Positions 14,295-36,500 of a DNA stretch of 64,000 nt are shown piece by piece. This DNA comes from Lepidurus packardi. Lineage: Eukaryota > Arthropoda > Branchiopoda > Notostraca > Triopsidae. How positions within the stretch are numbered: position 1 is the stretch's first letter; each line of letters opens with the position of its first letter. The stretch covers positions 950,565 to 1,014,564 of the forward strand of contig JAKZAN010000001.1 in assembly GCA_023053545.1 (NCBI GenBank). The letters are read 5' to 3'. The position numbers and the translations under genes were made by a program. Under the pieces are notes generated by a model. That model was not told the origin of the DNA, did not search any database, and worked only from the letters and a program-made list of their open reading frames with translations.

Positions 14295-15901
14295 CTTTTC
14301 TAGTAGCAGTAATAGCCGTAGAGTAAAGAAATATATGAAATATATAAATATATGAATAAAGAAATATATAAATGTTGTGTTTGTGTTCAAAATCTATCAA
14401 ATGCTGTCGGATGGTATCAAATTGTATCAGTTGTATCAAATCATCTATCAAATGCCATGAAGTTGTATCAAAACTTGTATCACCTGCTATCAAGTTGTAT
14501 CAAAAAGTGCGCGTTACTAGAACGGCCACAAGCGGCGCTTTGTCCAACTTGCAGCGTCAGTCGCGCTCGCAAAGTCGGACAAGCTACATGTTCAGACAGA
14601 AACTATTGTTATACATAAGTTTATATATAAAATAGTGGTGTTTTTAGCTGAATTTACGTAACTTAGTCTGTCTGCAGTTACGAACAACATTCCTGTTAAT
14701 TTATAAGCATGCATTCAGCTGCATTTGTGGATTTTGTGCGTGTTTTCAGTGCCAAGTTTCGTTCAAACGTTTGGGCGTGTACGCCTTTTTTAACGTCTAA
14801 AACGGACGATTTTGTGACATTTGGGCTGGACAAGCTCAAACATGATGCCGCTGGGTTCTTCTTTTTCACCTTTTGCCTGCTCCAGTTGGTAATTATTATT
14901 TGAATTTTTTAGGAGAGACATCCTTATTTGTAATTGTAAGCTTTTTTGCTTATTCCCAAGTGTGGCTAGGAGACGTGGACTTTCCACAAGTTTTGTTCCG
15001 TCCATTTCTTGTGTACAGTTATTTGTTGCCATTTTCCTTCATTTTTTTGGAGGGGAAATAGTATTGCTAGAACGCAGAACGTTTGCCATGGCCTTTGGCG
15101 AAATGGATACTGCCCTCTGTAGGCACTCGCCGCACTTTGCGTAGTGGACGGAATTAATCTCGTCAGCCATTTTGTGAACAGACGCCAAGCCGACTCCACG
15201 TCAGGTAATTTGCTCCCGTTTTATTCAACTTTTTCAACTCCCATCCTACTTTTATCAAACTGAAAGGCAAACAGACCTAAGTGTTATGCAATCAGCTTGC
15301 ATATCATCTCATTTTCTTAATTAAAAGTAACAATATTGATAATGTTCGACATTATTCCCAGGGGTAAGCGTCAGTAGATTTCGAACGTTTTCAAGTTTAT
15401 TCGCTCCCACTGGCTACATATTGCCATTAATTCAATTAACAACTAGTTATCAGTTAGTTATCATATTATGCCTTCCGTTTCCTCTAGTAAGGCGAAGATT
15501 TTGTTTTTCCTATTTTTTCACGAACATGTTCAAAATCCGATTTGAGCAATTTCCAGATTTCTCTTAATTCCTCATTCCTCATGACTACCAACAAAGATAC
15601 ACTCCCGGAGGGTAATCCCGTTTTTGGATTAAAGAAATTATCAATGTAAAGGAATTTAGCAATTTTCCGGTTAAAAAACGTAATATTAAAAATTCCCGCA
15701 TGGTCGCCATTGTCGGTCCCGGTCAAAGCTCCAGCGAACGTTTTTGTCCCCGCCCTGATCCGCCATTTTGATTTTTCTAGTCGGGTGGGATGACGTACTT
15801 TTTTCGAGACTCAAATTCAACTTGTCAAAGCTTAAAACCGTGTTAAGTTGTGTTTAAAGATGAACAGTATTACTAAGAGTTGTCCCTTTTCTATTTATTA
15901 G

Positions 15902-17360
15902 GTGGTGACAAATTTCACAAACAGTTCTATTGTTACAAACAGTTTTATTGTTAGTGTTAAGTGTGTGGTCCTACCGTTCCACTCAGCCAACTTGCTTTTG
16001 CCATCCTTTTGGAGAAGAAAAAGAGACTTTCACTCCGTTTGGTTCCCTTAGCGCTCCGGCTGGGATTTTGCTGTGTTTTCAAGATTGTTGCTGTTTTTTG
16101 CTTGGATCCACGTGTTGGCTCAGTCGAGGTAAGAACTTTTTCGAATTTTTTCCAAAGTGGCTTTCTGGTTTCTTTCCCTAATCGAAGAGTCCATTTTATG
16201 TTTCAACATGGTTAACATGGCCATAGTAGATAGATTACTTTGAAAGCGTTTAAAATAGCTCAGTTTTACAGTTTTTATTCATATTTTATAGTTTTTATTC
16301 TTGTTCTTTTTTCCTAGGACGTTCACGAGACCGGGAGAAAAGGGAGGGCGAAGTCTCGGAAGGCTATTGGTCGTAGGAAAGCAAAGCAAAAAAAAAAAAG
16401 GGGGAGCAGAACCTGCACCTGGTCGACTTTGGGCAAAATCTCCGCCTTTCCCACACTTGCTATGTCTCCAGCCGGGGAAAATGGATACATTTGAGTCTTC
16501 TGAATAAGGGAAGCACACTTTGTGGATTATTCTCTGCTTTCGCCTGCTCTTCGCCATGTAGACCTCGGAAAGAGGGTGGAAGAAGGAAATAACAATTTTG
16601 TGGGTTGTGGAACTCGTCCAATGTATCGAAGCGAAAAGGAAGAGTGAGTAAGTCGACTTGGTCAACGTCGCAATCGTCTGGAACTTGAGCCCTTTCTTTC
16701 AGACCTTTTCTTTTGTGAGTGTTTTTCTCATAATACTTTTGACATTATACTGATGCTTGTCTCTTTTATTCTAGAATTCTCATCGAAAACGAAGTGAAAG
16801 GCTTTCAACTGGATTCACTGGGTTACTACCCAACATTAGCTTCATGGGAAGCCTTTGTGACGCTAAACTCCGCCCACTTTCGAAGAAGCCGAGTATACTT
16901 GTAAGCCGCAGTTACCAGATTCGTCTTTGGTGTTCATTACGCCAGGTACATTCTTTGATTTGAATGAACTCGATCTTTTGTATTAATATCTGCCTTGTCA
17001 TTGTCTAATAGGCTTGAGACAGAGCTCCGTTTGGCTACTATTCCGTATTGGGGAAATACCGCGAGCCCGTTCAGTCTTCATGGTCGTCTGGGGTTTGGTG
17101 GGCGTGGTTGTGGGGCCGGTGGAGGACCAGCAGGCAAGGGACGGTGTTGCGTGTGTGGTGTTGAAGAGGGCGGAGTAAGTTTTGATTTCTTATTTATTTT
17201 TAATTCTCTCTACTAATGTTGTTTTTATTCCAATAGGCTATCCATTATTACTTAACAACATCTCCATGACATTGTGCCTTTATTGTGTCGTTCAATTCCG
17301 TCCATTAGAAGAAAGCGAAGAGTCTTGTGAGCTGCAGTTATCAAATCCCCCAGTTTCGTC
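15902..17360 (+). other. Exon-like module A in left arm
   Basis: Four exon-like segments bounded by consensus splice sites: 15902-16128 (ATTAG/... GTCGAG/GTAAGA), 16775-16945 (TTCTAG/... GCCAG/GTACA), 17012-17174 (TAATAG/... GGCGGA/GTAAGT) and one starting 17236 (CCAATAG/). Segment 2 is open in one frame, but joining it to segment 3 in that frame gives a stop, so a long protein is unlikely. It may be a spliced non-coding RNA or a decayed gene. The mirror copy is at about 27.29-28.74 kb on the minus strand. Confidence 0.55.
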
Positions 17361-18235
17361 CTTGGCGTCCGCAACTGGAGCTGTGCGATGCTTTCCCTCC
17401 TCCGATTTGTTAATTTTTTGGTAAGTGATTTTTATATTTGTATTTTCCTTCATTTTATTTGTATTTTCCTTCGTTTTATGCGTATTTTCCTTCAAATTAT
17501 TTGTATTTTCCTTCATTTTATGCGCATTTTCCTTCAAATTATTTGTATTTTCCTTCATTTTTTAGGGGGTGGGAATAGTATTGCTAAGACGCAAAATGTC
17601 AGAATATGGAGTTTAAAGACACTCACCCAACGCAGTGCCCAATCAGGATGCTCGTAATGTTGCCATGGTTTCTGGCGAATGGGTACAGCCCTCTGTCGGC
17701 GCTTGTCGGTGCTTGTCGATGACGACGGAATTAATCTCGTCTGCGAACAAAACTAGAACCTTCTACACGTCAGGTATTTTGCTCCCGTTTTATTTCAAGT
17801 TTATCGACGCCCATCCGACTTGTATCAAAGTGAAAGCATCCAACACTTGTATAGTATGCAAGCAGCATGCATATTCTCACAGTTTGCTCATTAAAAGTAG
17901 CAATATTGAGCATTTTCGACATAATTCGACATTAGTTTCTTCGCTCCCCGTTGGCTATTATATTGCCATTAGTGTCAAGTTCCCGCAGTGCCTTCCATTT
18001 CCTCTAGTCAGACAACGATTCGTTCTTTCTATTTTTCACGAAATCCGATTTTCTTTTTAGCAATTTTCCAGTGGCTTTTTTGATGTGTCAAGTCGGGTGG
18101 GGTGACTGTTTTAGTGACTCAACTTAAACAGGACAAAGCTTACAAAGTTGTGCTTAAACCTTACAAAGTTTACCCTTACAAAGTTGTGCTTAAACCTGAA
18201 CGGTATTTACTAAGAGTTCCTTTTCTATTTATTAG

Positions 18236-19250
18236 ACGGTGCCACATTTCACAGTGAGTGATAGTATGACAACGTGTTAAGCGTGTAGTGCTCATCCATT
18301 CCCTCTTCCTGTTCTGCTAAGCTGAGGCTGTGGGGAGCTATTATTTCATGTGCTGTGCTGGTGGAATCCGGCTGCGATTTTGCCGTGTTTTCAAGATTGT
18401 TGCTGTTTTCGGGGGGATCCACGTGTTCGCTCAGTCGAGGTAAGAACTTATTTGAATTTTTTCCAAAGTGGCTTTCTGGTTTCTTTCCCCAATCGAAGAG
18501 GCCATTATATGTTTGCAAGCTGTCCCATCTACCAGCTGCACTAAACCCTACAAACTGCGCCATCTATTATCAACTAGTAGAGACTCACTGAACACCCCCA
18601 AGGCACAAACGAACCAGCAGAAGGGTGTTTTTCTCCTGATACTTTTGACGTAATACTGATGCTTGTCTCTTTTGTTCTAGAATTCTCGGCGAAAACGAAG
18701 GGAAGGCTTTCAACTGCATTCACTACGTGACTACCCAAGATTAGAGCCATTTGAAGCCTTTCTGACGCTAAACTCCGCCCACTTTTGAAGAAGACGAGGA
18801 AACTTGTGAGCCGCAGTTACCAGATTCGTCTTTGATGTTCGTTACGCAAGGTCCATTTTTTAGTTTGAATGAACTCGATCTTTTTGTATTAATATCTGCT
18901 TTGTCATTGTCCAATAGGCTTGAGGTAGAGCTCCGTTGTGCTAATATTTCGCATTGGGAAATACCACGAGTGTGTTAAGTCTTCAACGGTACCAACGGAC
19001 CTTCTCTGGGTTTTGGAGGGCGTGGTTCGGGTGCATTGTGGGGCCTGTGGAGGACCAGCAGGAAATGGGCGTTATATTCTGGTGTGGTGATGAAGAGGCG
19101 GAGTAAGTTTTGACTTGTTGTTTTATTTTATTCTGTGTACTAGTGTTGTTGTTTTTATTCAAATAGGCTATCCATTGGAACTCCTGCGTTGCTACTTAAC
19201 AACATCTCAATGACATTATGAATGTATGTTGTTAAATGCCGTCCATTAGA
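18236..19250 (+). other. Exon-like module B in left arm
   Basis: Diverged copy of module A with the same splice borders: 18236-18439 (/GTAAGA), 18681-18850 (/GTCC), 18918-19102 (/GTAAGT) and a segment starting 19167. In one frame segment 2 reads GFQLHSLRDYPRLEPFE and ends LNSAHF-stop. The mirror copy is at about 25.4-26.4 kb on the minus strand. Confidence 0.55.
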
Positions 19251-20189
19251 AGAAAGCGAAGACATAAGAAGTGGCTCGGTTCTGGCCCTCGAATTCGCCA
19301 CAAGTTTCGGTTTGGCAAGCCGTTCTCTGATTCGCTACCATGGATGGACGAACCCGAACCGAAGCTGCGTAGCACTGCATGTGTTTTCGTATAAACACCA
19401 AACCGTGTCCGGATAGTTTCAAGAGTTTGTTGCCTTTGAACGGATGTCCACCCTGAAGAACCCTATAACGTCAGTTGCTCCCTAGCAAGCAGTCAGTGCT
19501 CACCTGCTTCTCTCCAGCGATGTTGTGAAAGCTAGTAGTGAGTTTATAGTTAAACATTACCAAGCATGTTGAACATTAACAATCGGATTAAGCGTTAACT
19601 TCGAAAACATTACCAATTGGATCTTCGAAAACCTGGAATCAATTCAAGTGCGCGTTTAAAGTGTTACGTGTGGTGTTTGGCAAAAGGCTTGTCAGGCCTA
19701 TGCCAGTACAAAAATATGTGTTGGTGTTAAGTGTGCTCTCTACTTCATCCCTGCATTACACCGGAAATGCAAAAGTGAGGACGAACGTCTCAAACGTGTG
19801 TTGTTGTGTTTTAGTTGTGTGTCGGGAGTCTACAAACACAAAATTCGGCAAGTTTTCTCCTCCTCCAAAGTCCTCCTCCTTTTCATACGTTTCTGTTTTC
19901 ACTCGTTTTGGGAGCCTTCCTCTGCGGATGTGTTCACACTTATTTGTAAGTTTTAAACATTTTGTTAATGAATTGATTTCATGCGTGCTAATATTTTTCT
20001 ATTTTCTTCTAGTTTTCGGTGGCGAAATGAAGGGGAAGAGTAATCCTGTGACAAGAGGTCAATCTAACGAATCCGATTTCAGTTTCAGTTTTGTGTTGAT
20101 TTCTTATTTTTTTTTTAATTCTCTTTTTAATGTTGTTTTTATTCCAATAGGCTATGCATTTATCCATTATTACTTAACACATCTCCATG

Positions 20190-21290
20190 ACTGACACATC
20201 TCCTGTTCTGCTAAGCTCAGGCTGTGGGGAGACAGCTATTGTTTCGTGTGCTGTGTGAGCCGCCAGGAGAACCAGATATGCCCGGAGTTGAAGAGTGTGG
20301 TGGAATCCGGCTGCGATTTTGCCGTGTTTTCAAGATTGTTTGTTTTGGGGGGATCCACGTGTTCGCTCAGTCGAGGTAAGAACTTGTTTGAATTTTTTTC
20401 AAAGTGGCTTTCTGGCTTTTTTCCCCCAATCGAAGAGTCCATTATATGTTTACAAGCTGCACTAAACCCTACAAGCTGCGCCTTCTACACACTACAAGCT
20501 GCAATAAACCCTACAAACTGCGCCATCTAGTATCAACAAGTAGAGACTCACTGAAAAACCCCAAGGCACGAACGAACCAGCAGAAGGGTGTTTTTCTCCT
20601 AATACTTTTGACATAATACTGATTCTTGTCTCTTTTGTTTCTAGAATTCTCGGAGCGAAAACGAAGGGAAGGCTTTCAACTGGATTCACTGCATGACTAC
20701 CCAAGACTAGAGCCATTTGAAGACTTTCTAACGCTTAACTCGGCCCACTTTTGAAGAAGACGAGGAAACTTGTGAGCCGCAGTTACCAGATTCGTCTTTG
20801 ATGTTCGTTACGCAAGTTCCATTTTTAGTTTTAATGAACTCGATCTTTTTGTATTAATATCTGCTTTGTCATTGTCTAATAGGCTTGAGGTAGAGCTCCG
20901 TTGTGCTAATATTTCGCATTGGGAAATACCACGAGTAGGCCCGCTCCTTTTCAGTGTGTTAAGTGTTCAACGGTAGCAACGGAGCAGCTTCTCTGGGTTT
21001 TGGAGGGCGTGGTTCGGGTGCATTGTGGGGCCTGTGGAGGACCAGCAGGAAAGGGGCGTTATATTCTGGTGTGGTGATGAAGAGGCGGAGTAAGTTTTGC
21101 CTTGTTATTTTTTGTAATTCTCTATACTAGTGTTGTTTTTATTCAAATAGGCTATCCATTGGAACTCCTGCGTTATTGCTTAACAACATCTCAATGACAT
21201 TATGAATTTATGTTGTTAAATGCCGTCCATTAGAAGAAAGCGAAGACATAAGAAGTGGCTCGGTTCTGGCCCTCGAATCTTCCTCTGCGG
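20190..21290 (+). other. Exon-like module C, left arm only
   Basis: Third, partial copy: first segment ends 20375 (/GTAAGA), second starts 20645, third 20883-21089 (/GTAAGT), fourth starts 21151. In one frame segment 2 reads GFQLDSLHDYPRLEPFED and ends LNSAHF-stop, closely matching module B. It has no counterpart in the right arm, which explains the 1.34-kb length difference. The junction near 21275 returns to sequence also found near 19920. Confidence 0.55.
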
Positions 21291-22286
21291 ATGTGTTTGT
21301 TCACACTTATTTGTAAGTTTTAAACATTTTGTTCATGAATTTGTACTGATATTTTTCTCTTTTCTTCTACTTTTCGGTGCCAAAATGAAGGGAAGAGGAA
21401 GTAGTCCTGTGCCAAGAGGTCAGCATCTCCTAACGAATCAGATTTCAGTGTAACGTCATGGGGACCTTCGGAGTGATGGTAGTAACGCTTTAAATTGACA
21501 TTTATAGGTTTTTGCTACTCATTGTTTCTTTCAGGCTAGCAAATAGAAGGCTATTTGGATTGAAGTCGAATATGGATGACAAGATTTCGAAGCGGGTAGC
21601 AAAAAGCCGATTTACATGCAGTTTGTATTGTTGAGATTTCTTTTACATTTTAATTTTCTTCACTTTTCCCCAAGTCACGCTTTAGATTCGCCGCTTCTTC
21701 ATTCGCCGTTCTCCTAGTACTTCAGGATTTCAGTTGACTGAGTTTCAACTGACTTGACTTTTAATTTATTTTCTTAATTTTAAGTTTTATTTATTTGTTT
21801 GTTTTGTTTATTTGTTCGCCTTATTTGTTGTACCAAAAAGTTCCCCGTAAAATCTAGTTTCCAAAAATATCCTTTTTGTATTATTTGCCAATTTTTCAAT
21901 AAAAATTAAAATTTTAAATATTTTTGCGTGAATTTTCAAAAAATCCGCTAAAAAAGGGGCGTGGTTTCCGAAATGGACGAATCCTATTGGTGGATTGGAC
22001 CAAAAAGGGGGCGTGGCTCCTTTTCGAGATTTCGAAGCGTTTTCTGGGCTATTTTCCATAAGGATCCCTGCACGATCAAGGGGGTCCCCTTGAAAAATCG
22101 TCAAAAATTGAAGCCTCGCCCCTTTCCCTGTACCCAACTCCCCTGCTCGGTTTCCTATGCACGATATTCGAGCTCGTAATGCCGAAGCATCACAATTTCG
22201 AATATGCGAATAGGAACCTTGCCAGGAAGGCATATGGTACAGGGAAAGGGAGCCAATTAATATTTCGTTTATTCGACGAAATAAAG

Positions 22287-22356
22287 TGCCACGACCGGGA
22301 ATCGAACCGAGGACCTTTGGGTCCCCAGTCATGCGTGTATCCACGCGGTCATGGGC
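22287..22356 (-). tRNA. tRNA-like module (likely SINE head or tRNA pseudogene), left copy
   Basis: On the minus strand it reads GCCCATGACCGCGTGG ... GGTTCGATTCC ... GTGGCA. The B box matches the Pol III consensus exactly (22298-22308), and an A-box-like TGACCGCGTGG lies near the 5' end at normal spacing. The acceptor stem and anticodon arm do not fold canonically, so a working tRNA is unlikely. It abuts a small hairpin ATTTCGTTTATTCGACGAAAT. Confidence 0.45.
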
Positions 22357-22407
22357 TTATATATAAAAGGCGTTGAGGCAGGTATATAAACAACATAGGA
22401 ACCAAGG

Positions 22408-22515
22408 TGTATGTATATGTATGTATGTATGTATGTGTGTGTATGTGTATGTATGTATATGTATGTATGTATGTATGTGTATGTATGTATGTATGTGTAT
22501 GTATGTATGTATACA
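22408..22515. repeat. ATGT microsatellite, left
   Basis: TATGTATG/TGTATGTA repeats interrupted by GTGTGT; mirror of the longer array in the right arm. Confidence 0.9.
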
Positions 22516-23340
22516 TGGAGTACGTGGAGTCAAAGGTGTACGTGCAAGGTTGCGAGAAGGTTATTTAAAGGTTATTGAGGTCATTTGAAGGTTATTTGAA
22601 GTCCGGGTAGCTAAAGGTGTACGTGCAAGGTTGCCTGAAGGTTATTTGAAGGTCATTGAGGTCATTTGAAGGTTATTTGAAGTCCGGGTAGCTAAAGGTG
22701 TACGTGCAAGGTTGCATGAAGGTTATTTGAAGGTTATTTGAAGGTCATTGAAATCCAATTCAATGACCTTCGAATAACCTTGAAGTAACCTTCAGGCTTC
22801 AAGGTTATTTGAAGGTCACTGAATTGGATTTCAATGACCTTCAAATAACCTTGAATGACCTTCAAATAACCTTCATGCAACCTTGCACGTACACCTTTAG
22901 CTACCCGGACTTCAAATAACCTTCAAATGACCTCAATGACCTTCAAATAACCTTCAAATGACCTTCATGCAACCTTGCACGTACACCTTTAGCTACCCGG
23001 ACTTCAAATAACCTTCAAATGACCTCAATGACCTTCAAATAACCTTCAAATGACCTTCATGCAACCTTGCACGTACACCTTTAGCTACCCGGACTTCAAA
23101 TAACCTTCAAATGACCTCAATGACCTTCAAATAACCTTCAAATGACCTTCATGCAACCTTGCACGTACACCTTTAGCTACCCGGACTTCAAATAACCTTC
23201 AAATGACCTCAATGACCTTCAAATAACCTTCAAATGACCTTCATGCAACCTTGCACGTACACCTTTAGCTACCCGGACTTCAAATAACCTTCAAATGACC
23301 TTTAAATAACCTTCTCGCAAACTTGCACGTACACCTTTGA
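22516..23340. repeat. Central 92-bp repeat array, orientation switching at the palindrome centre
   Basis: Right of centre, TTTAGCTACCCGGAC recurs at 22896, 22988, 23080, 23172 and 23264, exactly 92 bp apart. Each unit is mostly built of 11-mers TTCAAATAACC and TTCAAATGACC plus TTCATGCAACC and TTGCACGTACACC. About three units in the opposite orientation lie left of centre (22530-22750). The turn-over (22740-22860) is a run of shorter inverted repeats, e.g. TGAAATCCAATTCA and TGAATTGGATTTCA. Confidence 0.92.
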
Positions 23341-23356
23341 CTCCACGTACTCCATG

Positions 23357-23575
23357 TATACATACATACATACATACACATACATACATACATACATACA
23401 TACATACACATACATACATACACATACATACACATACATACACATACATACATACATACATACACATACATACATACATACACACACATACACATACATA
23501 CATACATACATACATACATACATACATACATACATACATACATACATACACACATACATACATACATACATACAC
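23357..23575. repeat. ACAT microsatellite, right
   Basis: About 220 bp of CATACATA with occasional CACATA; roughly twice the length of the left mirror. It is open in several frames (Tyr/Val/Cys/Met or Thr/His/Ile repeats), which is an artefact. Confidence 0.93.
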
Positions 23576-23625
23576 TTTGGTTCCTATGTTGCTTATATAC
23601 CTGCCTCAACGCCTATTATATATAA

Positions 23626-23696
23626 GCCCATGACCGCGTGGATACCACGCATGACTGGGGACCCAAAGGTCCCCGGTTCGATTCCCGGTCGTGGCA
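23626..23696 (+). tRNA. tRNA-like module, right copy
   Basis: Mirror partner of the left copy, with TGACCGCGTGG at 23631-23641 and B box GGTTCGATTCC at 23675-23685. It differs at a few bases (GATACCACGC against GATACACGC; CCCCGG against CCTCGG). The anticodon region is a strong GGGGACC/GGTCCCC hairpin rather than a normal 7-nt loop. Confidence 0.45.
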
Positions 23697-25399
23697 CTTT
23701 ATTTCGTCGAATAAACGAAATATTAATTGGCTCCCTTTCCCTGTACCATATACCAAATTCCCGCAAGGTTCCTATTCGCATATTCGAAATTGTGATGCTT
23801 CGGCATTACGAGCTCGAATATCGTGGATAGGAAACCGAGCAGGGGAGTTGGGTACAGGGAAAGGGGCGAGGCTTCAATTTTTGACGATTTTTCAAGGGGA
23901 CCCCCTTGATCGTGCAGGGATCCTTATGGAAAATAGCCCAGAAAACGCTTCGAAATCTCGAAAAGGAGCCACGCCCCCTTTTTGGTCCAATCCACCAATA
24001 GGATTCGTCCATTTCGGAAACCACGCCCCCTTTTTTAGCGGATTTTTTGAAAATTCACGCAAAAATATTTAAAATTTTAATTTTTATTGAAAAATTGGCA
24101 AATAATACAAAAAGGATATTTTTGGAAACTAGATTTTACGGGGAACTTTTTGGTACAACAAATAAGGCGAACAAATAAACAAAACAAACAAATAAATAAA
24201 ACTTAAAATTAAGAAAATAAATTAAAAGTCAAGTCAGTTGAAACTCAGTCAACTGAAATCCTGAAGTACTAGGAGAACGGCGAATGAAGAAGCGGCGAAT
24301 CTAAAGCGTGACTTGGGGAAAAGTGAAGAAAATTAAAATGTAAAAGAAATCTCAACAATACAAACTGCATGTAAATCGGCTTTTTGCTACCCGCTTCGAA
24401 ATCTTGTCATCCATATTCGACTTCAATCCAAATATTCGATCCAAATAGCCTTCTATTTGCTAGCCTGAAAGAAACAATTAGTAAAAACTTATAAATGTAA
24501 ATTTAAAGCGTTACTACCATCACTCCGAAGGTCCCCATGACGTTTACACTGAAATCTGATTCGTTAGGAGATGCTGACCTCTTGGCACAGGATTACTTCC
24601 TCTTCCCCTTCATTTTGCCACCGAAAACTAGAAGAAAAGAGAAAAATATTAGCACGCATGAAATCAATTCATTAACAAAATGTTTAAAACTTACAAATAA
24701 GTGTGAACACATCCGCAGAGGAAAGCTCCCAAAACGAGTGAAAACAGAAAACGTATGAAAAGGAGGAGGACTTTGGAGGAGAAAACTTGCCGAATTTTGT
24801 GTTTGTAGACTCCCGACACACAACTAAAACACAACAACACTCGTTTGAGACGTTCGTCCTCACTTTTGCATTTCCGGTGTAATGCAGGGATGAAGTAGAG
24901 AGCACACATAGAGATGAAGTAGAGAACACATATTTTTGTACTGGCATAGGCCTGACAAGCCTTTTGCCAAACACCACACGTAACACTTTAAACGCGCACT
25001 TGAATTGATTCCAGGTTTTCGAAGATCCAATTGGTAATGTTTTCGAAGTTAACGCTTAATCCGATTGTTAATGTTCAACATGCTTGGTAATGTTTAACTA
25101 TAAACTCACTACTAGCTTTCACAACATCGCTGGAGAGAAGCAGGTGAGCACTGACTGCTTGCTAGGGAGCAACTGACGTTATAGGGTTCTTCAGGGTGGA
25201 CATCCGTTCAAAGGCAACAAACTCTTGAAACTATCCGGACACGGTTTGGTGTTTATACGAAAACACATGCAGTGCTACGCAGCTTCGGTTCGGGTTCGTC
25301 CATCCATGGTAGCGAATCAGAGAACGGCTTGCCAAACCGAAACTTGTGGCGAATTCGAGGGCCAGAACCGAGCCACTTCTTATGTCTTCGCTTTCTTCT

Positions 25400-26410
25400 A
25401 ATGGACGGCATTTAACAACATACATTCATAATGTCATTGAGATGTTGTTAAGTAGCAACGCAGGAGTTCCAATGGATAGCCTATTTGAATAAAAACAACA
25501 ACACTAGTACACAGAATAAAATAAAACAACAAGTCAAAACTTACTCCGCCTCTTCATCACCACACCAGAATATAACGCCCATTTCCTGCTGGTCCTCCAC
25601 AGGCCCCACAATGCACCCGAACCACGCCCTCCAAAACCCAGAGAAGGTCCGTTGGTACCGTTGAAGACTTAACACACTCGTGGTATTTCCCAATGCGAAA
25701 TATTAGCACAACGGAGCTCTACCTCAAGCCTATTGGACAATGACAAAGCAGATATTAATACAAAAAGATCGAGTTCATTCAAACTAAAAAATGGACCTTG
25801 CGTAACGAACATCAAAGACGAATCTGGTAACTGCGGCTCACAAGTTTCCTCGTCTTCTTCAAAAGTGGGCGGAGTTTAGCGTCAGAAAGGCTTCAAATGG
25901 CTCTAATCTTGGGTAGTCACGTAGTGAATGCAGTTGAAAGCCTTCCCTTCGTTTTCGCCGAGAATTCTAGAACAAAAGAGACAAGCATCAGTATTACGTC
26001 AAAAGTATCAGGAGAAAAACACCCTTCTGCTGGTTCGTTTGTGCCTTGGGGGTGTTCAGTGAGTCTCTACTAGTTGATAATAGATGGCGCAGTTTGTAGG
26101 GTTTAGTGCAGCTGGTAGATGGGACAGCTTGCAAACATATAATGGCCTCTTCGATTGGGGAAAGAAACCAGAAAGCCACTTTGGAAAAAATTCAAATAAG
26201 TTCTTACCTCGACTGAGCGAACACGTGGATCCCCCCGAAAACAGCAACAATCTTGAAAACACGGCAAAATCGCAGCCGGATTCCACCAGCACAGCACATG
26301 AAATAATAGCTCCCCACAGCCTCAGCTTAGCAGAACAGGAAGAGGGAATGGATGAGCACTACACGCTTAACACGTTGTCATACTATCACTCACTGTGAAA
26401 TGTGGCACCG
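25400..26410 (-). other. Exon-like module B', mirror in right arm
   Basis: Reverse-complement counterpart of module B with the same splice-like borders, e.g. donor complement TTACCTCGACTGAG near 26205-26218 and acceptor complement CTAGAACAAAAGAG near 25967-25980. It appears identical to the left copy over long stretches. Confidence 0.5.
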
Positions 26411-27289
26411 TCTAATAAATAGAAAAGGAACTCTTAGTAAATACCGTTCAGGTTTAAGCACAACTTTGTAAGGGTAAACTTTGTAAGGTTTAAGCACAAC
26501 TTTGTAAGCTTTGTCCTGTTTAAGTTGAGTCACTAAAACAGTCACCCCACCCGACTTGACACATCAAAAAAGCCACTGGAAAATTGCTAAAAAGAAAATC
26601 GGATTTCGTGAAAAATAGAAAGAACGAATCGTTGTCTGACTAGAGGAAATGGAAGGCACTGCGGGAACTTGACACTAATGGCAATATAATAGCCAACGGG
26701 GAGCGAAGAAACTAATGTCGAATTATGTCGAAAATGCTCAATATTGCTACTTTTAATGAGCAAACTGTGAGAATATGCATGCTGCTTGCATACTATACAA
26801 GTGTTGGATGCTTTCACTTTGATACAAGTCGGATGGGCGTCGATAAACTTGAAATAAAACGGGAGCAAAATACCTGACGTGTAGAAGGTTCTAGTTTTGT
26901 TCGCAGACGAGATTAATTCCGTCGTCATCGACAAGCACCGACAAGCGCCGACAGAGGGCTGTACCCATTCGCCAGAAACCATGGCAACATTACGAGCATC
27001 CTGATTGGGCACTGCGTTGGGTGAGTGTCTTTAAACTCCATATTCTGACATTTTGCGTCTTAGCAATACTATTCCCACCCCCTAAAAAATGAAGGAAAAT
27101 ACAAATAATTTGAAGGAAAATGCGCATAAAATGAAGGAAAATACAAATAATTTGAAGGAAAATACGCATAAAACGAAGGAAAATACAAATAAAATGAAGG
27201 AAAATACAAATATAAAAATCACTTACCAAAAAATTAACAAATCGGAGGAGGGAAAGCATCGCACAGCTCCAGTTGCGGACGCCAAGGAC

Positions 27290-28745
27290 GAAACTGGGGG
27301 ATTTGATAACTGCAGCTCACAAGACTCTTCGCTTTCTTCTAATGGACGGAATTGAACGACACAATAAAGGCACAATGTCATGGAGATGTTGTTAAGTAAT
27401 AATGGATAGCCTATTGGAATAAAAACAACATTAGTAGAGAGAATTAAAAATAAATAAGAAATCAAAACTTACTCCGCCCTCTTCAACACCACACACGCAA
27501 CACCGTCCCTTGCCTGCTGGTCCTCCACCGGCCCCACAACCACGCCCACCAAACCCCAGACGACCATGAAGACTGAACGGGCTCGCGGTATTTCCCCAAT
27601 ACGGAATAGTAGCCAAACGGAGCTCTGTCTCAAGCCTATTAGACAATGCAGATATTAATACAAAAGATCGAGTTCATTCAAATCAAAGAATGTACCTGGC
27701 GTAATGAACACCAAAGACGAATCTGGTAACTGCGGCTTACAAGTATACTCGGCTTCTTCGAAAGTGGGCGGAGTTTAGCGTCACAAAGGCTTCCCATGAA
27801 GCTAATGTTGGGTAGTAACCCAGTGAATCCAGTTGAAAGCCTTTCACTTCGTTTTCGATGAGAATTCTAGAATAAAAGAGACAAGCATCAGTATAATGTC
27901 AAAAGTATTATGAGAAAAACACTCACAAAAGAAAAGGTCTGAAAGAAAGGGCTCAAGTTCCAGACGATTGCGACGTTGACCAAGTCGACTTACTCACTCT
28001 TCCTTTTCGCTTCGATACATTGGACGAGTTCCACAACCCACAAAATTGTTATTTCCTTCTTCCACCCTCTTTCCGAGGTCTACATGGCGAAGAGCAGGCG
28101 AAAGCAGAGAATAATCCACAAAGTGTGCTTCCCTTATTCAGAAGACTCAAATGTATCCATTTTCCCCGGCTGGAGACATAGCAAGTGTGGGAAAGGCGGA
28201 GATTTTGCCCAAAGTCGACCAGGTGCAGGTTCTGCTCCCCCTTTTTTTTTTTTGCTTTGCTTTCCTACGACCAATAGCCTTCCGAGACTTCGCCCTCCCT
28301 TTTCTCCCGGTCTCGTGAACGTCCTAGGAAAAAAGAACAAGAATAAAAACTATAAAATATGAATAAAAACTGTAAAACTGAGCTATTTTAAACGCTTTCA
28401 AAGTAATCTATCTACTATGGCCATGTTAACCATGTTGAAACATAAAATGGACTCTTCGATTAGGGAAAGAAACCAGAAAGCCACTTTGGAAAAAATTCGA
28501 AAAAGTTCTTACCTCGACTGAGCCAACACGTGGATCCAAGCAAAAAACAGCAACAATCTTGAAAACACAGCAAAATCCCAGCCGGAGCGCTAAGGGAACC
28601 AAACGGAGTGAAAGTCTCTTTTTCTTCTCCAAAAGGATGGCAAAAGCAAGTTGGCTGAGTGGAACGGTAGGACCACACACTTAACACTAACAATAAAACT
28701 GTTTGTAACAATAGAACTGTTTGTGAAATTTGTCACCACCTAATA
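27290..28745 (-). other. Exon-like module A', mirror in right arm
   Basis: Reverse-complement counterpart of module A, e.g. CTTACCTCGACTGAGCC near 28508 and CTAATAAATAG near 28740. A small difference from the left copy is a missing ~7-bp segment at TATCTGC(CTTGTCA)TTGTC before the third segment. Confidence 0.5.
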
Positions 28746-30465
28746 AATAGAAAAGGGACAACTCTTAGTAATACTGTTCATCTTTAAACACAACTTAACA
28801 CGGTTTTAAGCTTTGACAAGTTGAATTTGAGTCTCGAAAAAAGTACGTCATCCCACCCGACTACACAAATCAAGATGGCGGAACAGGGCTGGGACAAAAA
28901 CGTTCGCTGGAGCTTTGACCGGGACCGACAATGGCTGCCATGCGGGAATTTTTAATATTACGTTTTTTAGCCGGAAAAATGCTAAATTTGTTTGCATTGA
29001 TATTTCTTAAATCCAAAAACGGGACTACACTCCGGGGTGTATCTTTGTTGGTAGTCATGAGGATTGAGGAATTAAAAGAAATCTGGAAATTGCTCAAATC
29101 AGATTTTGAACATTTTCGTGAAAAAATAGGATAAACAAAATCTTCGCCCAACTAGAGGAAACGGAAGACAGAATATGGTAACGTCCTAGTAGTTGTTAAT
29201 TGAATTAATGGCAATATGTAGCCAGTGGGAGCGAATAAACTTGAAAACGTTCGAAATCTACTGACGCTTACCCCTGGGAATAATGTCGAACATTATCAAT
29301 ATTGTTACTTTTAATTAAGAAAATGTGATGATATGCAAGCCGATTGCATAATACTTAGGTCTGTTTGCCTTTCAGTTTGCTAAAAGTAGGATGGGAGTCG
29401 AAAAAGTTGAATAAAACGGGAGCAAATTACCTGACGTGGAGTCGGCTTGGCGTCTGTTCACAAAATGGCTGACAGGATTAATTCCGTCCGCTATGCAAAG
29501 TGGCGGCGAGTGCCTACAGAGGGCAGTATCCATTTCGCCTTGGACTCTCCCACGTGGCATGCCATGTTTTCAATCAGCTTCATTTGAATAACAGGCGAAG
29601 AAATAAGGATGTCTCTCCTAAAAAATTCAAATAATAATTACCAACTGGAGCAGGCAAAAGGTGAAAAAGAAGAACCCAGAGGCATCATGTTTGAGCGTGT
29701 CCAGCCCAAATGTCACAAAATCGTCCGTTTTAGACGTTAAAAAAGGCGTACACGCCCAAACGTTTGAACGAAACTTGGCACTGAAAACACGCACAAAATC
29801 CACAAATGAAGCGGAATGAATGCTTATAAATTAACAGGAATGTTGTTCGTAACTGCAGACAGACTAAGTTACGTAAATTCAGCTAAAAACACCACTATTT
29901 TATATAAAAACTTATGTATAACAATAGTTTCTGTCTGAACATGTAGCTTGTCCGACTTTGCGAGCGCGACTGACGCTGCAAGTTAGACAAAGCGCCGCTT
30001 GTGGCCGTTCCAGTAACGCGCACTTTTTGATACAACTTGATAGAATTTGATACACTTGATTGAGTTTGATACAACTTGATGGCATTTGATAGATGATTTG
30101 ATACAATCAAATAATAATTACAAACTGGAGCAGTCAAAAGGTGAAAAAGAAGAACCCAGCGGCAGCTCGTTTGAGCTTGTCCAGTCCAACTTGACAACGT
30201 CCTCCGTTTTACACGTTAAAAAACGCCTACACGCCCAAACGTTTCAGTGAAATTTCCACTGAAAACACTACGGTAGCCTACGGTTCTGCATTTCTCTATA
30301 TTTCTTTACTCTACGGCTATTCGCGCCACCTACTGTACTAGAAAAAGCCGAATTGCCCCTAAGTTAGACGCAAAAGGCAGTCTTTGTCACAACACGTGAC
30401 TGCGCGATCCCAAACAAAAACACTGCTGTGAACATAACATAACCCAAAACCCTAAAATCCGAAAA

Positions 30466-33577: not shown

Positions 33578-36500
33578 TCACACCAGAGGACTTCGCTTAT
33601 AGATTTCGTTCGGCAGCGTGTTCTGGTTCGAACTGTCGTTCAATCTTGTGCATTGCTACAAAAAGAAACATAACATTAAGCGTGTTTCGTTCCCCCTAAC
33701 TCGATAGTAAACTCGATAGTAAACTCGATAGTGAACTCGATAGTAAACTCGATAGTAAACTCGATAGTAAACTCGATAGTAAACTCGATAGTAAACTCGA
33801 TAGTAAACTCGATAGTAAACTCGATCGTAAACTCGATCGTAAACTCGATAGTAAACTCGATAGTAAACTCGATCGTAAACTCGATAGTAAACTCGATAGT
33901 AAACTCGATGATAGAATCGATGATAAACTCGATAATAAACTCGATAATAAACTCGATAATAAACTCGATAGTAAACTCGATAGTAAACTCGATAGTAAAC
34001 TCGATAGTAAACTCGATGATAAAATCGATGATAAACTCGATAATAAACTCGATAATAAACTCGATAGTAAACTCGATAGTAAACTCAATAGTAAACTCGA
34101 TAGTAAACTCGATAGTAAACTCGATAGTAAACTCGATAGTAAACTCGATAGTGAACTCGATAGTAAACTCGATAGTAAACTCGATAGTAAACTCGATAGT
34201 AAACTCGATAGTAAACTCGATAGTAAACTCGATAGTAAACTCGATGATAAAATCGATGATAAACTCGATGATAAACTCGATAGTAAACTCGATAGTAAAC
34301 TCGATAGTAAACTCGATAGTAAACTCGATGATAAAATCGATGATAAACTCGATAATAAACTCGATAGTAAACTCGATAGTAGACGTGCTGTATGAAGGAA
34401 GGTTCCAGACCAACTTACTGCTTGTTTCTTCTCCCACGTCTTCATTGCCATTTTGTACTTTTCAAACTCGTGACACCAGTCGGAATACACGCGTTGATAA
34501 TCATGCGTCTTGGCAGGTGCTGCGCATCGTTGCGCATCCACGGTAATATTATACGAGCAGAGAGTATCCGCTCCTAGACGACAATCGTAACGACCAGCTT
34601 CCGCTTCGCGTACGCCCAAAATGACCAAGCCTTGTTCCACTGTCTGAATGTATTTATCCGGCCTGGGGGGGAAAAGAAATAAGTTTTTAAATCTTTCGAA
34701 TGACTGAAGAATTATCGAACGAGAACCGTTAGGAAGGTAGGGAGAGACAAACGTTCGTTTTTCGTATTACCTGAACGTTAATTGGTAGAGTCCTTTTTCG
34801 CGGTTATAATGATGCCACGTGATGGGGACATTGGTGAGGGATTCTGGCAGCTTGACAGCACACGGCAAATGGACACTCTGGCCCCAGGTCACGAGCAACC
34901 GTTTTTTGGCTACATTAGAATCACAGATGCCCGGCGTGACATTAGACACGTCTTGCAGCAATCTAACGCAGAAAAAACACAGAAAAAATACAGAGAAATT
35001 AGGATGCACATCGCTCAACGTGCCGAAATAAAAATGCAAAACCGCAGAAGAAGATTTAAAAAAAAGAAAAGACAAAATCCTTTTTCGTTCAAGAGAACGT
35101 TTTTTACCCATCAGCGTAGGGTTTGCAGGTGTTGGTATCCTTATCCCACCCACAGTAAGGGTCTTTTACGCATCGTAAGCAGTTATCATAACGGCCATTG
35201 CACATAACGAGGTTGACTTGCTTGACTCGATGGTCGGAGGCTACGTAAATCGACTTGTGCTACAAAAAAGGGGAAAATGCAATACGATATTGAAAGAAGA
35301 ACTTGGATTTGAAGAAGAACCTGCAAGATTTCACAATCTTGCAGAATAATCCTGTTTTTCAAGCGTACTTTCGTGGAAATCTCCATAATACGAACAGGTT
35401 CAGGCGTAGTGACCTCAAAAACGTCCAATAACTCGGATTTTTGCTGGCTTTCTTCGTCGAACCATTGAACCACTTTGTAAACTCGTCCGTCAACTACAAT
35501 ACAAACGCAGAGGATCAATAATGACTTCTTTCTGTCTTTCTGTCGAGCTTTTCTCTCTTTTTTTTTACGAAAAGGAGACGAAAGGTGTATTCGATTTACT
35601 TGTCCCAGCATAATAGATGGTGTAGTGTTTGTCGTCATCCAAGACCCCCTCGATCCGGACTCGATCCACGACTAATGAGGTGAAACTGAGATCGCCCTTG
35701 AAGAAGACGGGCGCTCCGCTCTGGTGCGCCACAGCTTCGTCCATTAAGGGATGGCTTCTCAGGAAATTCAACACAGTGTCTGTAATAGGAAACCGGGAAA
35801 CAAAGAGATTATTAGACTCGTGAATGCGTTAATGCGTTAGAGCTTAGAGTGATTCACACCTGGCAATGTTTGTGTATCGTTGACGCATTGACCCGGACGC
35901 GGCTCAGGAACTTTGGACGAAAGCACGGGCAACCAGGCGGAGGAGGACGTTGCCTGCTCCTTGAACTTGCCCAGAAAGGCGTTCTGGATGTCAGCGGTGG
36001 TGAAGACGCAAATAGCCGAACCCGTTAAGCCGTTTTGACATGTCGTGAACACGGCGTAAAAACGAGTGTCATCCCCAGGAATCTTGTACACGCTTTCTGC
36101 ACCCCAAGAAACCCCACAAAAACATTTTTAATAATGATCTATTCATTTCCAAAACTCGCTTCAATTTTTCTCTCCATAAAACTACTTCTTTATTTAGTCT
36201 TTTTGCTAGGAATCCAACTGAAGCTCAAAACAAATTAAGGAAATCTCTTTTTCCTCCTTTCCCTGATTCGTCTAACTCGATTTTTTCGTAGAATCATAAA
36301 AAAAGATGCCAAAGGAAAGAAACGGTAATGCAGTTAACATCAGGAATACAGGAAGTATGAAGAAGGAACTAAAAAAATGGAAATATATAAGAAAACTTAC
36401 GGATTTCGTTAAAGTAGAAAGGAAATTCTCCTGGTATGGAGCAGTTGAGTCTGGCTTTGAGGAAAGTGGCCCAATTCTGGGACAGAATATTCTTGCCGCC

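What the first reader, a model, noticed from the sequence alone, without database searches (positions are those of the whole stretch)
14295..30350. A ~16-kb imperfect palindrome between a peroxidase gene and GTPBP3
Two arms of about 8.5 and 7.6 kb are reverse complements, with frames in one arm reappearing identically in the other over several kilobases. No standard protein-coding gene explains it. Perfect or near-perfect arms this long are rare and unstable. It resembles an extreme foldback element, a sex-chromosome-type ampliconic palindrome, or an inverted assembly join.
Basis: seen in the sequence. Interest (0 to 1): 0.88.

Follow-up and report, generated by a model that had tools for sequence, protein, structure and literature searches.

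The report
Linked giant palindromes, probably tadpole shrimp
A real 16-kilobase mirror-image stretch of apparently non-coding DNA, most likely from a tadpole shrimp, is one of eight such palindromes packed into about a megabase of one chromosome whose arms appear to overwrite one another, an unusual case of repeats being kept identical where no sex chromosome is known.

Summary
The palindrome is real. Its arms align over 4,980 bp at 98.5%, with 2,724 bp identical in both, plus outer (96%) and inner (91-95%) blocks. It is neither perfect nor an assembly fold-back: the left arm carries about 1.2 kb that the right lacks, the window has no N, and both flanks hold genes. The genome is most likely Lepidurus (Notostraca). 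The arm belongs to a dispersed repeat family; the left arm has no Pfam match in six frames. On this scaffold 15 of 16 arm-end matches lie in 0.3-1.46 Mb, in eight palindromes with unrelated flanks. All eight share a central minisatellite: of 68 matches of its 19-base word, 64 are in these centres, 4 on one other scaffold. Three share an identical 199-bp pivot, which suggests one origin and spread. Arms are mosaics: tracts identical to the sister arm (kilobases long in six of eight) alternate with tracts nearer another palindrome, a gene-conversion signature. Foldback-like in build, but fixed ends and target duplications were not found, nor a transposase in the left arm, so membership is not claimed. 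Sex linkage is untestable here. New variant of a known kind; function unshown.

The parts
14431..22751 (+). left arm of the palindrome, read from outer end (A) to centre; modules (my names) A 14431-14929, B 15083-15938, C 16027-16547, D 16719-17321, second B-C-D round 17571-19294, E 19309-20061, third C-D round 20201-21278, F 21279-22400
   Evidence: self-alignment and alignment to the other C1 palindromes
23117..30106 (-). right arm, inverted copy of the left arm without the third C-D round
16999..19722 (+). 2,724-bp tract of the left arm identical to the right arm
24925..27648 (-). the identical partner tract in the right arm
20084..21279 (+). left-arm-only segment (extra C-D round) without its own partner in the right arm; argues against a fold-back artefact
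23492..24723 (-). 1,232-bp tract of the right arm identical to the left arm of the palindrome at C1:787-802 kb
15012..15858 (+). 847-bp tract of the left arm identical to the right arm of the palindrome at C1:787-802 kb
22270..22352 (-). stretch that looks tRNA-like by eye (B-box-like word; label recalled) inside module F; the 21819-22363 part of F is a high-copy repeat
   Evidence: sequence; fold (z -2.55, no full cloverleaf); ARAGORN calls no tRNA
22408..22513 (+). TGTA microsatellite at the inner end of the left arm
23358..23574 (-). the mirror microsatellite at the inner end of the right arm
22532..22749 (+). centre minisatellite H, 81-bp units built from 11-bp words, forward half
22833..23301 (-). 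centre minisatellite H, 92-bp units, inverted half
22697..22895 (.). 199-bp pivot between the two H halves; identical at C1:1.15 Mb and, reverse-complemented, at C1:795 kb

Best explanation
The feature is an inverted dimer of a dispersed, apparently non-coding repeat unit (roughly 8 kb) of a notostracan crustacean, most likely Lepidurus. Two units lie tail to tail around a minisatellite centre. Shown: eight such palindromes sit at unrelated sites in about 1.15 Mb near one end of the 14-Mb scaffold C1; they share a centre found almost nowhere else; their arms are mosaics, with kilobase tracts identical between sister arms in six of the eight and shorter identical tracts between different palindromes. 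Inferred: the palindrome formed once, when a unit was copied back on itself at the 11-bp-word minisatellite. The finished palindrome was then copied to nearby sites, either by foldback-like local transposition or by break repair that used a neighbour as template, which would explain the ragged, varying ends. Since then arm-to-arm and palindrome-to-palindrome gene conversion overwrites the arms. It is most likely selfish or neutral repeat DNA; no host function is shown.
For: Arm family dispersed in the genome. Of 67 arm-end matches, 16 are on C1 and 15 of those lie in 0.3-1.46 Mb; of 16 neighbour pairs within 40 kb 14 are tail-to-tail, 0 head-to-head, 2 direct (binomial P 2.6e-7 against 1 in 4; within 20 kb 9, 0 and 2, P 1.3e-4). 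Centre minisatellite word: 64 of 68 matches in the eight C1 centres, 4 on scaffold C16. Identical 199-bp pivot in three palindromes and a shared 26-base core in all eight. Exact runs between sister arms 2.7-4.9 kb in six of eight palindromes, beside parts of the same arms that differ by about 2% or more in five of them (the 309-kb copy has only the one block); exact runs between different palindromes up to 1,232 bp. Step-by-step nearest relative among the 16 C1 arms is the sister arm in some tracts and another palindrome in others. In trees of modules E and F sister arms are identical in four palindromes each. Flank homology between copies ends within about 50-600 bp of the arm-end word. No Pfam match in the left arm; 1- and 2-base indels among copies inside the best conserved blocks argue against a protein frame.
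Against: No target-site duplication or constant terminus was seen, so how copies reach new sites is not shown. The shared pivot could itself have been spread by conversion, so it does not prove a single origin. Two of eight palindromes (309 kb, 1.43 Mb) adjoin assembly gaps, so their arm identity is less secure. The palindromes at 541 and 625 kb have no long identical sister tract (378 and 225 bp), and in the tree of module B the window's two arms do not pair (few branches are well supported). Conversion is inferred from one assembled genome; very recent duplication of arms could mimic part of it. Palindromes and solitary copies also occur on other scaffolds, so the C1 cluster is a subset, not the whole family.
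Confidence: 0.7

Rival explanations
1. It is an ordinary non-autonomous foldback-type (long terminal inverted repeat) DNA transposon with unusually long arms that hops locally. (Overlaps with the best explanation, which leaves the mode of spread open.)
For: Long inverted arms, internal tandem repeats, no recognised coding sequence in the left arm, seven inverted pairs on C2, C3, C5 and C6, unrelated flanks at each C1 site. Published foldbacks such as Tetris are non-autonomous, modular and rearranged (PMC4079207, passages seen).
Against: No target-site duplication recognised, no constant outer end: end types, sorted by eye, differ between the two ends of the palindromes at 419, 541, 795 and 1430 kb; no transposase in the left arm. 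The one copy with a long coding frame in its centre (C5) owes it to what its 1,229-bp direct repeats mark as an LTR retrotransposon; that frame was not scanned.
Confidence: 0.35
2. It is an ampliconic palindrome array of a sex-linked or otherwise non-recombining region, kept by arm-to-arm conversion as on mammalian Y or willow W.
For: Eight palindromes in 1.15 Mb of one chromosome, sister arms identical for kilobases in six of eight, tracts shared between palindromes. Triops cancriformis, another notostracan, is described as ZW (PMC12527168, passages seen).
Against: No recognisable gene in the left arm; inverted copies occur on four other large scaffolds; nothing here links C1 to sex.
Confidence: 0.12
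3. It is an inverted assembly join or fold-back read artefact.
For: Two sister copies (309 kb, 1.43 Mb) adjoin 100-N gaps and have near-identical inner arms; at 1.43 Mb two back-to-back inverted pairs flank the gap, as overlapping contig ends would.
Against: In the window copy the arms differ by 47 mismatches, 16 gap openings and a 1.2-kb segment; no N; genes on both sides; the same architecture at seven other sites, five of them without a gap.
Confidence: 0.04
4. The palindrome is a transcribed hairpin locus that makes double-stranded RNA and small RNAs.
For: Arms face each other; mirror-image AT skew (minus 0.14 to minus 0.25 left, plus 0.10 to plus 0.25 right); GC-rich outer ends that look promoter-like by eye.
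Against: Splice-donor counts are not above shuffles; no Rfam match at gathering scores; no RNA data.
Confidence: 0.12

Closest known systems
Foldback elements (FB of Drosophila, Galileo, Tetris)
   Same: long inverted arms with internal tandem repeats, modular rearranged copies, dispersed in the genome
   Different: complete arms of about 6-14 kb here (19 kb as assembled at 1.43 Mb, where the assembly is doubtful); ends vary and no target duplications were recognised; a cluster with one private centre; kilobase-scale identity between arms and shorter identity between loci
Sex-chromosome palindromes with arm-to-arm conversion (primate Y, willow W)
   Same: several palindromes on one chromosome, identical tracts between arms, exchange among arms
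   Different: no recognisable gene in the left arm; sex linkage unknown; family also present on other scaffolds; arms far shorter than the large Y palindromes (recalled)
Gene palindromes of Adineta vaga and Folsomia candida
   Same: inverted duplications on one chromosome or scaffold of an invertebrate (PMC7953838 and PMC5490193, passages seen)
   Different: those are collinear gene blocks; the Folsomia authors conclude that concerted evolution does not explain them, whereas here the tracts point to it

Membership tests
Foldback / long-TIR DNA transposon | long inverted terminal repeats | tested here: met
Foldback / long-TIR DNA transposon | internal tandem repeats in or between the arms | tested here: met
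Foldback / long-TIR DNA transposon | constant outer termini | tested here: not met
   among the C1 palindromes end types vary between copies and between the two ends of one palindrome; a constant end lying further out and lost by truncation is not excluded
Foldback / long-TIR DNA transposon | target-site duplication | tested here: inconclusive
   none recognised by eye in the ends printed; true ends uncertain
Foldback / long-TIR DNA transposon | transposase in the family | tested here: inconclusive
   none in the six frames of the window's left arm; other copies and an autonomous partner were not searched
Ampliconic sex-chromosome palindrome | sister arms more alike than copies elsewhere, in identical tracts | tested here: met
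   kilobase tracts in six of eight palindromes, not at 541 and 625 kb
Ampliconic sex-chromosome palindrome | genes in the arms | tested here: not met
   no Pfam match at E<=1 in the six frames of the window's left arm; arms of the other palindromes not scanned
Ampliconic sex-chromosome palindrome | lies in a sex-linked, non-recombining region | not testable with these tools
   no male, female or recombination data
Assembly artefact | arms identical but for sequencing error, one flank missing or a gap at the join | tested here: not met
   window copy: asymmetric arms, genes on both flanks, no N; the 309-kb and 1.43-Mb sister copies do adjoin gaps

The most novel reading that the evidence does not exclude
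The eight palindromes, with a centre minisatellite all but private to 0.3-1.45 Mb of one chromosome, mark a special chromosome region: either a young non-recombining (sex-determining) block of a tadpole shrimp in which palindromes are maintained by conversion, or a chromosome-specific recognition site (pairing or chromosome-wide regulation) whose working part is the inverted array of 11-bp words.
Probability: 0.1. Interest if true: 0.85.

Novelty: new variant of a known kind. Interest (0 to 1): 0.57.

Why it matters
Conversion-maintained palindrome arrays are best known from sex chromosomes and are usually explained by the rescue of genes there. An array of eight, with no recognisable gene in the one arm scanned, in a small crustacean genome that also holds solitary and inverted relatives of the same unit on other scaffolds, lets one ask whether palindromes homogenise simply because they are palindromes, how long the tracts are, and how a palindrome spreads. 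If C1 proved sex-linked it would be a new independent case in an order noted for its labile sexual systems (PMC3585860, title and abstract start seen in the listing).

Tried and rejected
Protein-coding content: six-frame Pfam scans of the left arm with X at stops gave nothing; a protein search with the longest frame of the high-copy F repeat gave no hit at E<=0.001 among 77 candidates. Known RNA: no Rfam match at gathering score in the window; 15 relaxed hits in 14295-23400 were all below gathering and mostly in the microsatellite or the centre; ARAGORN found no tRNA. Spliced-gene reading: GT-AG pairs with 60-190-bp spacing looked convincing by eye in the D and C modules, but donor counts were not above dinucleotide shuffles (left arm 1 against a mean of 2.0; acceptors 16 against 10.5 in the left arm and 14 against 8.4 in the right, reached by 9 and 2 of 100 shuffles), so it is not used. 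Segmental duplication of the region: not supported, flanks of different copies share at most short pieces up to about 600 bp beyond the arm-end word (hits of 40 columns or more, and only 0.9-1.7 kb of flank was held at 1150 and 1430 kb). Target-site duplications: none convincing. First guesses of Daphnia and then Triops were replaced by Lepidurus after the mitochondrial-copy search.
Full report
OBSERVATION. The inverted repeat is there. Within the window, 15097-20083 matches 29539-24548 in reverse complement at 98.4% over 5007 columns, flanked by an outer block (14431-14929 with 30106-29601, 96%) and an inner block (21280-22751 with 24723-23209, 91%) (re-aligned). The longest exact inverted match is 2,724 bp, 16999-19722 with 24925-27648; in 20 crude shuffles of the window the longest inverted BLAST hit had 52 columns. 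The left arm holds about 1.2 kb, 20084-21279, without a partner of its own in the right arm.

GENOME. The window is C1:950565-1014564 of a 108.6-Mb assembly in 344 contigs. Six scaffolds (C1-C6) are 10.7-14.0 Mb; of fourteen other contigs whose length was read (C7-C15, C17, C18, C38, C100, C344) none exceeds 0.24 Mb, while C16 is 2.05 Mb; the rest were not looked at. A mitochondrial COX1 copy inserted in C6, read in the invertebrate mitochondrial code, is closest to Lepidurus apus apus and L. couesii (98% over the 403 residues), with other Lepidurus at 97% and Triops at 96-97% (best 120 of 7999 listed). That makes the source a notostracan, most likely Lepidurus; it rests on one nuclear copy of one gene.

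THE FAMILY. DNA searches with four pieces of the left arm find relatives on all six large scaffolds (each call scored 40 of 165-342 candidates, so counts are lower bounds). The 18 highest-scoring places for the inner piece, of 66 rows, are all on C1. A 25-base word from the outer end of the arm, up to two mismatches, occurs 67 times, with 0 for the reversed control. Sixteen matches are on C1 and 15 of these lie between 0.317 and 1.450 Mb; they make seven plus-then-minus pairs and one right end whose left partner is missing next to a 100-N gap (305001-305100). Of 16 neighbouring pairs within 40 kb in the genome 14 are tail-to-tail, 2 direct, 0 head-to-head (P 2.6e-7 if one in four were expected). 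So the unit occurs alone, in direct tandem, and among close neighbours above all as inverted dimers. Off C1, tail-to-tail pairs lie on C2 (two), C3 (two), C5 (one) and C6 (two). Two of these seven were read almost whole: C3:4454/4463 kb has arms 98.7% alike near the ends and 88-93% further in; C5:8243/8263 kb has arms 85-94% alike and an LTR retrotransposon in its centre.

THE EIGHT ON C1. They are centred near 309, 419, 541, 625, 795, 973 (the window), 1150 and 1427-1437 kb. Sister-arm identity over the main aligned blocks: 99.9% (309 kb), 99.1% (419 kb), 87-94% (541 kb), 92-96% (625 kb), 99.1% (795 kb), 94-98.5% (973 kb), 97.7-99.7% (1150 kb), 97-99.9% (1430 kb) (blocks within tandem arrays left aside). 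The flanks are unrelated: homology between different copies stops about 50-600 bp outside the arm-end word (the flank held is under 1 kb for one end each at 1150 and 1430 kb). A 19-base word of the centre minisatellite, up to one mismatch, occurs 68 times in the genome, 0 for the reversed control: 64 in the centres of these eight palindromes, forward on the left and reverse on the right, and 4 on scaffold C16 beside plus-strand arm modules. The pivot between the two halves is the same 199 bp in the window and at 1150 kb and its exact reverse complement at 795 kb; all eight share the 26-base core GGTCATTGAAATCCAATTCAATGACC or its complement. A shared pivot suggests that palindrome formation happened once and was copied, although conversion between palindromes could also have spread it; the flipped centre is what crossing-over between arms would give (inference). 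Caution: the 309-kb copy begins at an assembly gap, and the 1.43-Mb copy has a 100-N gap between two back-to-back inverted pairs, the second without the minisatellite, which looks like two overlapping contig ends.

CONCERTED EVOLUTION. Sister arms share exact runs of 3936, 4921, 4446, 2724, 3787 and 4216 bp at 309, 419, 795, 973, 1150 and 1430 kb, but only 378 and 225 bp at 541 and 625 kb. Between palindromes exact runs reach 1,232 bp (window right arm with the 795-kb left arm) and 847 bp (window left arm with the 795-kb right arm). In overlapping 300-bp steps, compared with the other 15 arms of the C1 set only, the nearest relative of the window's left arm is its sister in 23 of 55 steps, tied in 3, another palindrome in 28, none in 1; for the right arm 24 of 48, 2, 21 and 1. 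The steps fall into blocks: in both arms the outer part matches mainly the 795-kb palindrome and the middle the sister; the inner part of the right arm matches the 795-kb palindrome, that of the left arm several. At 541 kb the sister arm is almost never nearest (2 of 92 steps left, 0 of 41 right). In the trees of modules E and F the sister arms are identical in four palindromes each (309, 419, 795, 1150 kb in E; 309, 419, 1150 and one pair at 1430 kb in F); in the tree of module B only those at 1150 kb are identical and the window's two arms fall apart; few branches are well supported. Long identical tracts beside divergent ones in the same pair of arms are what gene conversion leaves. It is inferred from one genome; a second species is needed to prove it.

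WHAT IT IS NOT. No protein family matches any frame of the left arm (Pfam, E<=1) and indels of one and two bases separate copies inside the best conserved blocks. No known RNA family reaches its gathering score in the window. An exon-intron reading that looked good by eye failed a shuffle test. Ends are ragged: three kinds of outer sequence were told apart by eye (two of them related, about 81% over 118 bp), and the two ends of one palindrome differ in kind at 419, 541, 795 and 1430 kb; no target-site duplication was recognised. For these reasons it works like a foldback element in several ways but is not filed as one. Sister-arm sharing resembles sex-chromosome palindromes, but no gene was found in the left arm and no sex data exist here.

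LITERATURE. The search for palindrom, Triops, Lepidurus and Notostraca (at least three of four) gave 29 papers; the 15 listed hold the word palindrom 0 times. The listings for Daphnia with palindromes, Triops or tadpole-shrimp genomes, Lepidurus genomes, foldbacks and palindromes with conversion show no title that describes such an array; most of these lists are capped. Passages were seen in PMC7953838, PMC12527168, PMC4079207, PMC4168063, PMC4815504 (reference-list lines only), PMC7023750 and PMC5490193; none was read whole. Subscription papers are not held, so this is not proof of novelty.

VERDICT. Shown: structure, number on C1, near-private centre, shared pivot, mosaic arms. Inferred: conversion as the cause, single origin and local spread of ready-made palindromes, selfish or neutral nature. 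Not shown: how copies insert, any transcription, any link to sex.

Noticed in passing
G000 C2:2986991-3018528 and C2:3601057-3624862 (places): Two large tail-to-tail pairs about 0.6 Mb apart carry the same variant words in mirror order (left end of one like right end of the other), as if one palindrome had been copied or the segment between inverted. The stretches could not be fetched.
   Followed up: partly
G000 C5:8251557-8258266 (L032/L033): A stretch with 1,229-bp direct repeats 99.8% alike and a long open frame (LTR retrotransposon, by structure) sits in the centre of a C5 inverted copy: a recent insertion.
   Followed up: no
G000 C1, C2, C4, C5, C6, C21, C38: Many nuclear fragments of mitochondrial COX1, with several on C4 between 0.79 and 1.54 Mb.
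   Followed up: partly
G000 C52, C214, C43: COX1-family frames without stops in the standard code, probably bacterial contigs of symbionts or contaminants.
   Followed up: no
window 33698-34381: Array of tandem repeats in a 12-bp register, about 90% alike or more, after the GTPBP3-like gene.
   Followed up: no
G000 C2:4326456, 4330985, 4335515 and C2:12737001-12743000 (L031): Partial units of the same family in direct repeats of about 4.3-4.5 kb; L031 has an 80-bp minisatellite that also forms a long array in the palindrome at C1:1.15 Mb.
   Followed up: partly
G000 C16:98107-110189 and C5:62618-80000: Plus-strand arm modules with the same word variant in both places; C16 is the only place outside C1 with the centre minisatellite word, so C16 may belong near the source of the C1 subfamily.
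   Followed up: no
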